A stretch of 62,952 nt of DNA, taken from Limnothrix sp. RL_2_0. Lineage in GTDB: Bacteria > Cyanobacteriota > Cyanobacteriia > Cyanobacteriales > MRBY01. The position numbers and the translations under genes are program-made. Where the stretch lies: NCBI GenBank assembly GCA_012033055.1, contig JAAUPR010000001.1, positions 55,701 to 118,652 on the forward strand, given 5' to 3'. Shown piece after piece: positions 5,533 to 54,028 of the stretch (position 1 is the stretch's first letter; each line of letters opens with the position of its first letter). The notes under the pieces were generated by a model. It had not been told where the DNA came from. It did no database searches and saw nothing but the letters and a program-made list of their open reading frames with translations.

Positions 5533-6520
5533 TCAGCCGCCAATTTGAGACATAGTGCGACCGTAGGTGCCGGAGTCGCTGCCCATTTCTCGCATTTTGA
5601 AATTAATATCTGGTTTTCGCTGGAGCAGATGCTCTACTTGTTGGCGAAGAATAGCGGTACTGGTGTGGCTACGGAGAGCGGCTTTGAGGTTAATCTGTTC
5701 CGACTCATTGAGGAGACAGGGGCGCAACCAACCATCGGCAGACAAACGCATCCGGTTACAGCGATCGCAGAAACATTCAGACATTTGCGAGATAAAACCA
5801 AGGGTTCCCTTTGCACCGGGGATCTGAAAAATATCGGCGGGGCCATTGCCCTGAATCACCGCTTCCTCTAGCCCCCATTTCGCACGAATCCGTTGTCGCA
5901 ATTCCTCCGAAGGGATCCATGCCCGTTGATCAAAAAGTTCACCATTGCCGATGGGCATAAATTCGATAAATCGTACGTGCCAGTGCGATCGCGGAGAGGG
6001 CAGCCAGTTCGAGAATTTCGCCATCATTTACCCCCGGTATCACTACCACATTGAGTTTCAGCGGATTGAACCCCACAGCGTAGGCCGTTTGAATCCCGTT
6101 CCATGTTTGCTGCCAGCGGCTCCGACCACCGTTCCCGATAATTTGATCAAAGGTCTGGGGATTAAGGGAGTCAAGGCTGATATTGAGACGATTTAGGCCC
6201 GCATCATATAGATCAGCGGCTAAAGTTTCTAATAGATAGGCATTAGTGGTCATCGAGAGATCTTCTACTTCCGGCAAGGCGGCGATCGCCCGCACTAGAT
6301 CCACCAAACCCGGACGCAGTAGCGGTTCCCCCCCCGTGAGCCGAAATTTCCGAAACCCCACCGGAATGAACACATCCCGCAGCAGAGTCATAATTTCATC
6401 ATTACTTAGAAGTTCTGGCGTGAGGAGATACTTTAATTCTGCATCGTCTGGGACACAGTAATTACAACGAAAATTACAGCGATCAATGAGGCTAATGCGC
6501 AGGTAATCCACTATATTCAT
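5533..6520 (-). pseudogene. moaA: GTP 3',8-cyclase MoaA, frameshifted
   Basis: MoaA is the radical SAM enzyme that starts molybdenum cofactor synthesis from GTP. The N-terminal half (6520 to about 5985) has the 4Fe4S loop C-NFR-C-NY-C (RCNFRCNYC) and [11 protein letters not shown]. The C-terminal half (to 5533) has [15 protein letters not shown], the second cluster's Cys residues ([11 protein letters not shown]) and the essential C-terminal Gly-Gly. The halves are in different frames. The junction is a HIP1 octamer at 5985-5992. Adding one C on each side of it (gene strand) gives LSRDRHWHVRF, matching the family's DRxWHVRF spacing, and a 329-aa protein of normal length. The lesion is thus two missing bases or a genuine knockout. 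It is transcribed divergently from guaA. Confidence 0.85.
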
Positions 6521-8728: not shown

Positions 8729-9902
8729 TTACTCCCAAGGCTCATCCACATTCATGTTCGCTTCTTCATGGATATAATCAGGCTTCTCAGTGCGAGGCAA
8801 CTGACCAGATAGAACCAGATGCGCCATCGTATCGCAAATGACACGGGTTGCCATAAGTGAAGTCATATCACTCACATCATAGGGCGGCGAAACTTCGACC
8901 ACTTCCATGCCACATACTGGTACTCGTTGGACAATTTTGCCGAGGAGAGCCAAAGCCTCGCGGGGGAGCAATCCACCCGGTTCTGGCCAACCTGTACCCG
9001 GTACAAACCCTGCATCGATGCAATCAATATCAAAACTAATCCAAACACAATCGGTCCCGTCCATGGCGCGTTCGATGGCAAACTCTGCCGCTGCATCAAT
9101 GCCCATTTCCGTAATATCAGTCACCGTTAAAATATTCGTAGCTCGTTCGCGGCAAACCTTTACCCCTTGGCGAGGCACTTGCCAGCCCCCAATGCCTAAT
9201 TGCACTAAGTTTTTCGCCGGAGCATTCGCCATATTGGTCGCATGGAACCAAGGACAAGTGTGCATCCGTTCGTCGAGGTCTGTTTCTTGGGTATCTACGT
9301 GGCGGTCAAAGTGAATAATGCCAACTTTTTTTATCGCCTAAATGACGGCAAATGCCGCGTACTGTGGGGAAACCGATGGAGTGGTCTCCACCCAAAATAA
9401 TGGGAAAAGCGCCAGAGCTAAAGACATGGGCAACCCCTTTAGAAATCTGGTCAAAAGATTTTTCGTTATTCGCCGGAATGGTGAACACATCGCCCACATC
9501 ACAGAGTTTGATTTGCTCCCGGAGATCGATACCCATCTCGAAGTTGTAGGGGGTATACAACGCGGAAATACGCCGGATACCTTGGGGGCCGAAGCGAGTG
9601 CCCGGACGATAGGTTGTGCCGGAATCGTGGGGTACACCCATAATGGCGATGTCATATTCGCCAACTTTGCGGACATCCTCGACGTAGGGTGCTTTCATGA
9701 AGGTATTGATGCCGGCATAGTGGGGCAATTCTCCCCGTGAGAAGGTGGGAATGCTGCGATCTTTAATGCTTGCGGCACCTTCTAGACCGTATTCTAAGCC
9801 TTGGTCAACTTCTTGTTGCCAGCCTGTGAGGGGGAGGCGGGATTCTTTGTCTAGTGCTTGTTGGGCTTCGCTTGGCGGACGGAAATCGGGTTGATTACTC
9901 AT
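8729..9902 (-). pseudogene. gdmH: Guanidine hydrolase/agmatinase-family ureohydrolase, frameshifted
   Basis: An arginase-fold metalloenzyme. The N-terminal part (9902 to about 9326) has GVPHDSGTTYRPGTRFGPQG and GGDHSIGFPTVRG. The C-terminal part has WISFDIDCIDAGFVPGTGWP and GMEVVEVSPP, which carry the second set of metal ligands. The frame breaks at a run of seven T (gene strand A7) at 9326-9332. Removing one base gives DKKVGIIHFDRHVDTQ and a continuous 390-aa protein. Length and the HFDRHVDTQ segment (rather than HFDAHxD) resemble Synechocystis Sll1077, the nickel-dependent guanidine hydrolase GdmH, more than classic SpeB; this is from memory. The start is the ATG at 9902, not the frame's first ATG. 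Slippage, sequencing error and true loss are all possible. Confidence 0.75.
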
Positions 9903-9987
9903 GGGGTAAAACGATGCTTTTCTTATTTTTTGGGTGAGGCGCAATAAAATTAGACCACAGAAATCCTAAATCTAGAGATTGTTAATT

Positions 9988-13140: not shown

Positions 13141-14804
13141 TTAACGGGACAGTTTAGGAGCTGTTTGGGGTATTTTGTGGGTGAGTAAAAGGGTGAGGGA
13201 TGCGCCCAAAATTAGACCTAGAAAGTGACTGTAAAAGCTCACATTAGTCGAACTCAAATCGACGGAAAATTGGATCACGATAATCAACAACACTAGCCGA
13301 AATTGTCGCAGTGCGAGTTTAGATTCGTCCCGTTGCCAACCGCGAAATAGTACGGCGGCGATCGCCCCGATCATGCCCATAATTGACCCCGAAGCCCCGA
13401 CCCACAGCCGATAGGAATAACGAATTTCGTCCGTGAGAAATTGGAACCAGCGGGGAAAAACGTTGAAGTCGATCCCTTGGGTGATAGTCACCAACCCCAG
13501 TAAAATCACCATCGCCCCGACACCGCTTACGAGATAAATAAACAGATATCGCCATTTCCCCAAGTGCTTTTCCACAAAGCCCCCCAGCAGATATAGCGTA
13601 AAAATATTGGTCAGCAGATGCCCCCAGTTGACATGGATAAAAGTTGCCGTAAACAGCCGCCACCATTCGCCAGCCCACACGGCATTAGGGGTAAAGCCGC
13701 CAAGGTCGAGCAGAGCATCACGACCAATTTTAAAATTCATCACAATACCCACCAAAAACACCACACAGTTCAGCACGACAAGCACCGTATTGACGGACAA
13801 ACCCTGTTGAAAAAAGGCACGACGCTCGATTAATGATTGGTAGGAACGTTCAATATTTTCTTGACGAATATCGCGACTGAGCTGGGCAATGAGTGGGTAG
13901 GATTCAGATTTGAGTATGGGTTGTGCTGGTTGGGGGGGGGACTGGATCCGGGCTTGGATCGCGGCTGTAAAATCTTGGTCGGGTTGATCGAGTAAGGTTT
14001 TGAGTTGTTTTTCGCCCACTCGTTTTTCGCCAGCGCAGTACCAGGCGATCGCCACCCAGAATTTTTTGATGTCGTCGGGGTAAAAGGCGAGGCAACCGGA
14101 CAATAAGGCTTCGGTTAATTTCACTTCGCCACAAAAGGCACTAGCAAAAAGTTGTACTAAATGAAAGGTGCGGCGATCGCCTACTTTGAGCAAGATTTTT
14201 TTCGATGGTTGCATTGCCAACAACAGCTCGTGGAGATGCCCCGTTTCCCCCAAGGCGCGACAATAATACATCCGCAATAATGGATCCCGTGAAGGGGTCG
14301 ATTTCGTCCCTAGCCACCCAAGCAATCCAGACCAATCAAATCGCATGGCATAATACATGGCGATCGCCTGCTGGGCCACAAACCCCGGTCGCTCCCCATA
14401 ATGATCCAAAATAGCCTTTGCTTTGGCAAACTCTCCCTGTTGCCCCAGTCGTAGGGCCTGAATGATTTTCGGCTGTTCCCACCAAGTATCAAACGGGTGA
14501 AAAAAGCGCAGTACCAGTGACCAATAATAAGCTTGCCGAAATTGCTGCCCGTAGAGCAATGCCTGAATTCGCCGCACTCCGAGGGACGGAATCACAATCA
14601 AAATCCCCCAAGCCATCAACCCCACAATTGCCGCCCATTGCATCGAGATGAAATTTGCCCCCCACATCATTCCCAGTACCACAATTGCTTTATAGAGCCA
14701 TCCCTTGGGGCGAGGCGACGCGATCGCATGGTTCGAAAAATGAGGAGGCTACAGGATAAAGAAATACCGTAAAAAATCAGGAAATACCAATTGAGAAATG
14801 CCAT
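13141..14804 (-). pseudogene. Large rhomboid-family protease, frameshifted near the N-terminus
   Basis: The 3' frame (GTG at 14682) encodes 513 aa. It has membrane segments near its start, a soluble alpha-helical TPR-like middle (about 60-270), then a six-helix rhomboid core with HVNWGHLLTNIFTLYLLGG, the nucleophile in VGASGSIMGMIGA and the catalytic His in SHFLGLILG. Upstream, another frame from the ATG at 14804 gives a credible N-terminus (MAFLNWYFLIFYGISLSCSL, a membrane helix) that ends after 45 codons. Adding one base to the G4 run at 14707-14710 joins them as RSRRLAPKGWLYKAIVV, giving 554 aa. It is either a consensus error or a recent lesion. If real, the catalytic part may still be translated from GTG. 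Confidence 0.75.
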
Positions 14805-44727: not shown

Positions 44728-44893
44728 TAACCGCCCCAGACCTTCAATAAATAATCAAGCCAAAGCCAATTACCCCAACCAGTCGTTCGCTGCCCAGTGA
44801 GTCCTGTGGAGAGTTTCCCCGAAATCTTTCTTCAGCAAATCCCTTTAGAATATGTAAAACATTTGAAATTCCGATAATTAAAGCAAATTTATT

Positions 44894-46389
44894 ATGGTTC
44901 TTTCTCCAGAAACCTCGACATTAATTTTTCTAGCTGTCGCTGCCCTAGGCATGGTTTTGTGGGGATACCAGCGATCGCAAAAAATGGGTCGCATTGGACT
45001 TTTGGCCTGGGGTCAATCCCTCTCCCTCACCGCACCATGGCTCGTTTTTGTAGGGTGTGTTTTGTTGCGAATCAACCTCGATCTCATCGGTATTGTGATG
45101 CTCCTTGTCGCTTCAGCGGGGGCCTATATTTATTTGGGTCGGCTACGGCGAGAGGCGGGTGAAGAAGAGAAACTTCGGCAAAAGGCGCTGGAACGTTTAC
45201 AGGATGAGCAGGCAACAGAGCAAGCCCAGCAAGTTAAGGCCAAGAGTCAGGCACAGGAAATTGTCGTTGACCCCATTGACACCGAAGATTTACAGGAAAT
45301 TAAAGGTATTTTTGGCATTGATACTTTTTTTTCGACTCAATCTGTTCCCTATCAAGATGGGGTGATTTTCAAGGGGAATTTACGGGGCAAACCAGAGGAA
45401 ACTCATCAGCGATTGACGGCAAAATTGGGCGATCGCCTCGGCGATAAATACCGTCTTTTCCTCGTCGAAGATCCAGAGGGAAAACCTGTGGTGATCGTTT
45501 TGCCCAGTACCAACGATCCGAAGCCCAGCACTCTGGTGCAGAAAAATTTAGCCGTCGTCTTACTCCTTGCAACCCTTGCTACCACATTAGAGGCGATCGG
45601 CATTCTGAAAGGCTTTGATCTGTCCAGTAATTTCAGTCGTTATCAGGAAGTGTTGCCGCTCAGTTTGGGCATGTGGACAATTCTCGGAGTCCATGAGTTG
45701 GCTCATCGGGTTACGAGCGAAAAATACAACGTTAAACTTAGCATTCCCTTCTTTTTACCCAATTGGCAAATTGCGTCTTTTGGCTCCATTACGCGCTTTG
45801 AATCTTTGTTACCGAACCGTACCGCCCTCTTCGATATTGCCTTTGCGGGGCCAGCAGCAGGGGGGATTTTTTCAATTTTGATCTTGATTACGGGTCTGAT
45901 TTTGTCCCACCCCGGTAGTGCCTTTCAAATTCCTAGTCAATTTTTCCAAGGTTCCATCCTCGTGGGGCGATCGCCCGTATTTTTCTTGGGGACGCGATCC
46001 ATAGCGCCGTTGTGGATATTCACCCCTTCACGATTCTCGGTTGGCTCGGCTTAGTGATCACCGCCTTGAATTTGATGCCAGCAGGATGCCTTGATGGAGG
46101 TCGTATTATTCAATCCATCTATGGCCGCAAAATTGCCCGCCGCACCACCTTAGCGACCCTCGTTATTTTGGGCATTGTGTCGCTATTTAACCCCACCAAT
46201 CCCATTCCCCTCTACTGGGCGCTCATCATTGCCTTCATCCAGCGGGATGCCGAACGACCCAGCCTTAACGAATTGTTAGAACCCGACGATACCCGTGCCG
46301 TACTGGCGTTAGTGGCGTTATTTCTGATGTTGATCACCCTGATTCCTTTCAGCCCCAGCTTGGCGGGACAACTAGGCATCGGTGCGTAA
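44894..46389 (+). pseudogene. EGY-like site-2 protease (M50), frameshifted
   Basis: An intramembrane zinc metalloprotease of the cyanobacterial/plastid EGY type. The 5' frame has two membrane helices near the N-terminus, a soluble domain (about 70-215), then the zinc motif GVHELAHRVTSEKYN (HExxH) and IPFFLPNWQIASFGSITRF. The 3' frame has the third zinc ligand in NLMPAGCLDGGRI. The join is at a G4 run (45964-45967) that is part of a HIP1 site. With one more G the frame reads VGAIARIFLGDAIHSAVVDI and the protein is 498 aa. All motifs are otherwise intact. It is either a consensus error or a recent inactivation. The DUF6391-like gene follows by 48 bp. Confidence 0.82.
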
Positions 46390-52676: not shown

Positions 52677-54028
52677 TTAGTTTTCGTTGCTGAGAGCCAG
52701 ATCATTAAGTTGTTCTTGGGTTTTCAGAGTGCTAGCAAGATAGGCCGCAATTAATAGAAAAGCCCCCCCTAACATCACTGCTGAGAGGCGATCGCCACCG
52801 AGAAAATACCGCATTACCCAGCCCAACCCCAGCGCCGCAATAATCTGGGGAATGACAATAAACCCGTTAAAAATACCCATGTAAAGGCCGAGATTTCTAC
52901 CCGGCAGACTGTCGGACAACATCGCATAAGGAATCGACAAAGTACTCGCCCAAGCCATCCCAAAACCGACCATGGGTAACAGCAATACATATTGATTGTG
53001 AATGCTGCCAAGGGACAAAATACTCAGGCCGCCACAGGCCAAACACATCCCATGTACGAGCGGACGACCCCATTCCCGCGTCAACATTGGCAAAATCCAA
53101 GAGAAGGCAAAACACACGGCATTATACGCAGCGATACAGATTCCCGCCCATTCGATGCCCTTGTTATACAGTTCTGAATGTTTTTCCACTGCGCCAAAAA
53201 TGCTGTAGGCGATCGCCGGTGGAAAGTAGAGAAACACGCAAAAAATGCCAAGCCAAGTAAAAAACTGTACCCCAGCTAAATTTTGCATCCGGTCAGGCAT
53301 TAAACGAATCCTAGTGGAAATTTCCGTGAGCATCCCCGTAAATCCTGATTCGGTGCGATCGCCTGACGTTTTTCCAGCGTCGCAAAATCCTTCGGGAGCG
53401 GTTCCACCGTAGTAAAGACAGTCCAGAGCACCGTACCCAGAAAAATGGCCGACCCCAGATAAAAAGAAAATTTAACCGACGGGGGAATCGCCGCCTCTTG
53501 ATCCAGCGCCTGAGTAAATCTGAACACATGGCTCAACGTCCAAGGTGAGAGGGCCGCCAACACCGAACCCGCCCCGATAAAACAGCTTTGTAACGTAAAC
53601 CCTTGGGTCTGTTGTTTTGATGGTAAAAGATCCGCGACAAACGCCCGAAACGGTTCCATACTGACATTTACAGAAGTATCGAGCATCCAGAGTAAACCCG
53701 CCGCCATCCACAAACTAGAAGAATTCGGCATTAAAATCAGCGCCACCGAACTACAAATGGCTCCCACGAGAAAAAATGGTCGCCGCCGTCCCAAAGAAGT
53801 CCAAGTGCGATCGCTGACATAACCAATCAACGGTTGGGCAATTAAGCCACTAAGGGGAGCTGCCAGCCAAAAAATAGGGATTTGTTCAACGCTTGCCCCC
53901 AAATATTCATAAATGGCGCTGGTGTTGGCGATTTGCAGTGTCCAGCCATATTGAATACCAAGGAAACCGATACTCATATTCCAGAGTTGCCAGAAGCCAA
54001 ATGTCTCTTGGGGATGTTGTTCGTCCAT
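52677..54028 (-). pseudogene. MFS (GPH/SLC45-like) sugar transporter, frameshifted
   Basis: A twelve-helix major facilitator of the glycoside-pentoside-hexuronide/SLC45 kind. The N-terminal half (from the ATG at 54028) has FLGIQYGWTLQIANTSAIYE and the loop 2-3 motif GYVSDRTWTSLGRRRPFF. The second half (to 52677) has FFTWLGIFCVFLYFPP and SIPYAMLSDSLPGRNLG. The frame breaks at a C4 run at 53334-53337. One more base gives NQDLRGMLTEISTRIRLMPD and a 450-aa protein. Helices and motifs are otherwise intact. It converges with the cyclo-ligase homologue, only three bases between stops. The transported sugar is unknown. Confidence 0.8.

What the first reader, a model, noticed from the sequence alone, without database searches (positions are those of the whole stretch)
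5985..5992. moaA frameshift flanks a HIP1 site on both sides
The moaA break is a GCGATCGC octamer. Adding one C on each side (gene strand) restores LSRDRHWHVRF with correct family spacing. CGATCG inside HIP1 is cytosine-methylated in cyanobacteria (M.Ssp6803I in Synechocystis), and GATC is also a Dam-type target. Methylated motifs cause systematic nanopore base-calling errors. A second break (M50 protease) also touches HIP1. If real, the cell cannot make molybdenum cofactor.
Basis: partly seen in the sequence, partly recalled or inferred. Interest (0 to 1): 0.55.

Follow-up and report, generated by a model that had tools for sequence, protein, structure and literature searches.

The report
HIP1-linked false frameshifts in cyanobacterial assembly
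The broken cofactor gene is most likely not broken in the living cell: this draft genome has lost single bases beside a very common cyanobacterial 8-letter motif in many genes, including one the cell should not be able to live without, so the break is probably a sequencing or assembly error.

Summary
moaA (window 6520-5536, minus strand) changes frame at GCGATCGC 5985-5992, net -2 against G001 and G005; all five same-genus genomes have an unbroken moaA. It is one case of an assembly-wide class. Against relatives' proteins (161 genes, 141 kb), 14 of 16 break calls are credible and 12 of those 14 lie at HIP1, where about 3% would by chance; each is a one-base loss except moaA. A reference-free scan shows the same excess here (23 of 69 frame switches near HIP1, 11.8% expected) and none in two relatives (19 of 168, 11 of 113). 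The only pheS, an essential gene, is split the same way, as are moaC, moeA and an FdhF-type gene. Selection on the Moco proteins does not look relaxed. So: a systematic sequencing or assembly artefact, not Moco loss. The nanopore-methylation mechanism is not supported: no break at 741 other GATC sites, and a cytosine methyltransferase found in 36 of 39 other genomes was not found here. The platform is unresolved; contig features suggest short reads. An excess of breaks in Moco genes (p 0.003) remains unexplained.

The parts
5536..6520 (-). moaA (GTP 3',8-cyclase, first step of Moco synthesis), in two frames; the only moaA-grade match in the genome
   Evidence: TIGR02666 profile 9-180 and 183-336 in two frames; the other two of the four G000 matches were too weak to be listed; PF04055 and PF06463
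5985..5992 (.). HIP1 octamer GCGATCGC at the moaA frame break; net -2 against G001 and G005
45967..45974 (+). HIP1 at the frame break in a peptidase M50 gene (44882-46389)
   Evidence: frame switch; PF02163 on both sides; frames
53355..53362 (-). HIP1 at the frame break in an MFS transporter gene (54031-52680)
   Evidence: frame switch; PF07690 2-179 and 203-346, the second half below Pfam's cut-off
14720..14727 (-). HIP1 at a probable frame break near the N-terminus of a rhomboid-domain gene (13141-14682 plus upstream); the weakest of the HIP1 cases
   Evidence: frameshift-aware alignment, step at 14719; PF01694; position
9326..9332 (-). A7 run at the frame break in an arginase-family gene (9944-8729); not HIP1
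   Evidence: PF00491 2-110 and 135-277 in two frames

Best explanation
The moaA break is a consensus error of this draft assembly. Reads or assembler dropped a base at the edge of the HIP1 palindrome (mostly written GGCGATCGCC in this genus) at about 2-5% of HIP1 sites; at moaA two bases are missing. The cell very probably has an intact moaA and makes Moco. Shown: HIP1-bound frame losses across the sampled genome, their absence in two relatives, and the same lesion in the only pheS. Inferred: that the loss arises in sequencing or assembly, and that the reads were short reads prone to indels in C/G doublets (ion semiconductor type) rather than nanopore.
For: 12 of 14 credible reference-based breaks lie at HIP1, 11 one-base losses plus moaA -2. 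Five more HIP1 breaks have the same family on both sides: M50, MFS, SurE, HetZ-related, PheS. Reference-free scan: G000 23 of 69 switches near HIP1 (11.8% expected, p 2e-6), 20 of the 23 in the -1 sense; G001 19 of 168 and G005 11 of 113, both at expectation. pheS is split at HIP1 on C137, with no other match but a 75-nt piece at the start of C196; in 5 of 5 relatives it is open. Private residue changes G000 vs G005: MoaA 13/19, MoaC 7/10, NarB 20/33, MoeA 35/27. 4 of 45 gap and contig edges examined abut HIP1 (p 0.008; one, C150, starts inside it). Ion Torrent: strand-asymmetric high-frequency indels, 82% in homopolymers of 2-3, dominated by deletions of C and G (PMC3623719, passages).
Against: No reads and no record of the platform were available. 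Moco-linked genes are hit more than others: with moaA left out, 4 of 13 breaks fall in 4.8% of the aligned sequence (p 0.003). thrC, also broken at HIP1, has a second intact copy. MoeA has slightly more private changes in G000 than in G005. One of 8 break calls in the control genomes (G001, near an N-terminus) touches HIP1. Extended-HIP1 flanks are not depleted, though a few per cent of loss would hardly show.
Confidence: 0.92

Rival explanations
1. The artefact comes from nanopore base-calling at methylated HIP1: m5C in CGATCG or m6A in GATC makes the caller drop a neighbouring base.
For: Losses sit beside a motif methylated in other cyanobacteria (PMC4390886, passages). A D12-type adenine methyltransferase is present. 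DNA methylation is listed as a nanopore error source (PMC11649196, passage).
Against: 0 breaks at 741 non-HIP1 GATC sites against 12 at 233 HIP1 sites. The C5 methyltransferase strongly matched in 36 of 39 other genomes was not found in G000. 200 contigs, 100-N gaps and an implied 127-base contig overlap do not look like a long-read assembly.
Confidence: 0.12
2. Real loss of molybdenum cofactor synthesis and nitrate reduction in this strain.
For: moaA, moaC, moeA, narB and an FdhF-type gene are all frameshifted, more than the general rate predicts. Some genomes of the order (G007, G011, G028) have no TIGR02666 match over the cut-off.
Against: The lesion is the one found in unrelated genes, among them the only pheS. 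moaE is intact. Private changes are not raised in MoaA, MoaC and NarB.
Confidence: 0.04
3. Real, recent single-base deletions at HIP1 edges in the living genome, for example a mutator state after loss of the CGATCG methyltransferase.
For: The C5 methyltransferase was not found here while HIP1 density is normal, 1.74 per kb.
Against: The only pheS is broken, which should be lethal. In the 12 cases the octamer itself stays intact, unlike damage from a cut inside it. Some 170-350 sites would be hit genome-wide by extrapolation.
Confidence: 0.03

Closest known systems
Ion Torrent high-frequency indel (HFI) errors (PMC3623719, passages seen)
   Same: Recurrent single-base indels; the strand-asymmetric ones mostly deletions of C or G in homopolymers of 2-3
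   Different: Not tied to one motif in the passages seen; the platform of G000 is unknown and strand asymmetry needs reads
Methylation-linked nanopore consensus errors (named as an error source in PMC11649196, passage; details recalled)
   Same: Losses beside a motif that is methylated in other cyanobacteria
   Different: No breaks at other GATC sites, methyltransferase not found, assembly does not look long-read
False frameshifts in the older Synechococcus elongatus PCC 6301 sequence (PMC9239245, passages seen)
   Same: Apparent frameshift or nonsense changes in essential genes that vanished on resequencing
   Different: No HIP1 link stated in the passages seen

Membership tests
MoaA (TIGR02666) | N-terminal radical SAM domain with CxxxCxxC | tested here: met
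   PF04055 5e-31; CNFRCNYC in the upstream frame (motif recalled)
MoaA (TIGR02666) | C-terminal Mob_synth_C domain with a second cysteine set and a GG tail | tested here: met
   PF06463 3e-37; [20 protein letters not shown] and final GG in the downstream frame (motif recalled)
MoaA (TIGR02666) | one continuous reading frame over the family cut-off | tested here: not met
   two frames, 199.4 and 113.4 bits against a cut-off of 284.05; held here to be an artefact
Ion Torrent-type high-frequency indel | single-base deletions of C/G in doublets or triplets | tested here: inconclusive
   11 of 12 HIP1 breaks are one-base losses; their position at the edge of GGCGATCGCC fits a C/G doublet, but the missing letter is inferred by hand from relatives
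Ion Torrent-type high-frequency indel | strand-asymmetric support in reads | not testable with these tools
   no reads held
Nanopore methylation error | errors at sites of the methylated motif in general (GATC, CGATCG) | tested here: not met
   0 at 741 non-HIP1 GATC sites; 0 at 43 non-HIP1 CGATCG sites, the latter uninformative
Nanopore methylation error | cognate CGATCG methyltransferase in the genome | tested here: inconclusive
   G001 query: best G000 match 45% over residues 2-175 only, 108 bits, while G002-G005 give about 350 bits over the full length; the assembly is incomplete, and that the query is the CGATCG enzyme is inferred from its spread and PMC4390886
Decaying Moco pathway | relaxed selection and lesions of several kinds | tested here: not met
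   private changes not raised except slightly in MoeA; three of the four other Moco-linked breaks are at HIP1, one at an A run

The most novel reading that the evidence does not exclude
HIP1 edges are a true indel hot spot in this strain, linked to loss of the CGATCG methyltransferase, and the cell tolerates the breaks (pheS included) by frameshifting at HIP1 during translation or by keeping a mixture of intact and broken chromosome copies.
Probability: 0.03. Interest if true: 0.85.

Novelty: not a real feature. Interest (0 to 1): 0.25.

Why it matters
It warns that gene loss read off this assembly is unreliable: by extrapolation about 170-350 HIP1 sites are affected genome-wide, enough to fake loss of Moco synthesis, of glycogen breakdown or of a tRNA synthetase. 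HIP1 is very frequent in many cyanobacteria, so a count of HIP1-edge frameshifts is a cheap quality check for other draft genomes.

Tried and rejected
An essential-gene argument from thrC was dropped: a second intact copy exists. Depletion of extended flanks was looked for and not seen (both flanks G..C: 70.2% of HIP1 in G000, 68.3% in G001, 71.9% in G005). A shared break point in other genomes: G053 moaA breaks near the same residues, not at HIP1; G048 and G015 moaA break elsewhere, and whether those touch HIP1 was not checked. Naming the organism: Oscillatoria/Limnothrix rosea (4.0 Mb, Illumina; PMC5334580, whole text; PMC6256058, passages) is a possible match for G000 or for G005, so no platform was taken from it. 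The first frame scan was too strict (1 call in 370 kb) and was retuned after looking at moaA and guaA. A first reference comparison with fewer proteins was replaced. Two of 16 reference-based calls were dropped as spurious by my judgement (window 6687 and 49237, both +1, outside credible coding sequence). Of the 29 HIP1-near switches listed, nine outside the window were sent to NCBIfam as pairs: three had the same family on both sides, six were inconclusive.

Paper searches for HIP1 with nanopore, sequencing error or Ion Torrent listed no title or abstract start that reports HIP1-linked assembly errors; most listed papers were not opened.

Full report
Setting. The window is G000:C64:55701-118652, part of a 4.13 Mb draft in 200 contigs, 97.45% complete, with five same-genus genomes held. 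HIP1 (GCGATCGC) occurs 6835 times, about one per 600 bases; the reversed control pattern occurs 28 times.

The observation. moaA lies in two frames: TIGR02666 positions 9-180 and 183-336, each below the cut-off. Of 60 genomes searched, 53 have a match over the cut-off, all five same-genus relatives among them; two further G000 matches were too weak to be listed. The frame step is at GCGATCGC 5985-5992. G001 and G005 have the spacing implied by a net -2, and G001 has GGCGATCGCC at the same codons; the other three relatives were not aligned at the break.

Other Moco genes. MoeA, MoaC, MoaE and two molybdopterin oxidoreductases are present. moaE is intact; moeA, moaC and narB are each split into two frames. 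moeA and moaC break at a HIP1 edge, narB at an A run. The FdhF-type gene breaks at HIP1 as well.

Genome-wide test with references. Open frames from 1.21 Mb of G001 and 0.73 Mb of G005 were compared with the G000 stretches; 161 genes and 141.4 kb were covered. Sixteen break calls were scored by a frameshift-aware alignment; two (window 6687, 49237) were dropped as spurious. Of the 14 left, 12 lie at HIP1: moaA, moaC, moeA, FdhF-type, glycogen phosphorylase (twice), 4-alpha-glucanotransferase, an oligopeptidase A-like gene, threonine synthase, NblB, an Opp/Dpp-type permease, and a rhomboid-domain gene (the weakest case). The other two are narB and 6-phosphogluconolactonase. In these cases the octamer is intact, and the alignments fit a base missing at its edge. 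The covered sequence holds 233 HIP1, so 5.2% are hit. The binomial p is 1e-16 for 12 of 14, and 3e-15 if the two dropped calls are counted. Controls: 4 break calls in 154 genes (152 kb) of G005 and 4 in 168 genes (168 kb) of G001; one of these eight, near the N-terminus of a G001 gene, touches HIP1.

Reference-free test. Frame switches were called from composition, with a model trained on each genome. G000: 69 switches, 23 within 30 nt of HIP1 (11.8% expected). G001: 19 of 168 (12.2% expected). G005: 11 of 113 (11.1% expected). Many switches are ordinary gene junctions, which dilutes the signal: of the 69, 37 look like junctions by a simple rule, 15 of them near HIP1.

An essential gene. One HIP1 switch on C137 splits pheS: both frames match TIGR00468. 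The only other match in the genome is 75 nt at the start of C196; the five relatives each have pheS in one open frame. The break is at a HIP1 edge. A growing cell cannot lack PheS (established knowledge), so the sequence as given cannot be that of the living genome at this site unless translation is rescued or an intact copy is missing from the assembly. SurE and a HetZ-related gene are split at HIP1 in the same way, and in the window an M50 and an MFS gene.

Selection. Counting residues where G000 alone differs, against G005 alone, gives 13 and 19 (MoaA), 7 and 10 (MoaC), 20 and 33 (NarB), 35 and 27 (MoeA). Only MoeA leans the other way.

What kind of error. Ten gaps in 370 kb of G000 are all exactly 100 N; the G001 stretches counted have none and the G005 stretches one. 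Of 45 gap and contig edges looked at, 4 abut HIP1 (p 0.008; one starts inside it), and 8 abut an A or T run of five or more (counted by eye, no control). The C196 piece of pheS begins where position 126 of C137 lies, which implies a contig overlap of 127 bases, a usual k-mer length (inference from the coordinates; the letters of C196 were not read). No other overlap was found among 27 sampled contig ends. This points to a short-read de Bruijn assembly. High-frequency indels of Ion Torrent data (PMC3623719, passages) resemble the lesion, but the platform of G000 is not known. Methylation is a weak cause: the 14 breaks include none at a non-HIP1 GATC site (741 sites). A C5 methyltransferase of G001 has a match with E below 1e-50 in 36 of the 39 other genomes searched (not in G012, G034 and G035), but in G000 only a 45% match over residues 2-175 (108 bits), in a frame that resembles other methyltransferases. 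A D12 adenine methyltransferase is present.

What does not fit. Moco-linked genes are hit more often than others: with moaA left out, 4 of 13 breaks lie in 4.8% of the aligned sequence (p 0.003); per HIP1 site, 3 of 19 against 8 of 211 (p 0.05). This was seen after the fact, and several of these genes were fetched because they are Moco genes; it is kept as an unexplained observation.

Verdict. Ordinary in kind (an assembly artefact) but systematic and motif-bound, with an estimated 170 (scan) to 350 (references) affected sites genome-wide.

Noticed in passing
G000 whole genome: A C5 cytosine methyltransferase with a strong match in 36 of 39 other genomes (probably the CGATCG enzyme) was not found in this assembly, while HIP1 density is normal; real loss or missing sequence.
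   Followed up: partly
window 8729-9944, minus strand: An arginase-family gene is split at an A7 run, not at HIP1; probably a homopolymer error.
   Followed up: partly
L142 (G053:C363) 2546-2606: moaA of a genome from another family is also frameshifted near the same residues, not at HIP1.
   Followed up: partly
window 5536-6520; L149, L116, L131, L163: Five of six Moco-linked genes of G000 are frameshifted, more than the general rate predicts even with moaA left out.
   Followed up: partly
L136 15601-15700: A 100-N gap lies directly before window position 1.
   Followed up: no
G001, L168 13134-14375: The G001 methyltransferase is closer to copies in other families (about 50-55%) than to those of its own genus (44-46%), which suggests replacement by transfer.
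   Followed up: no
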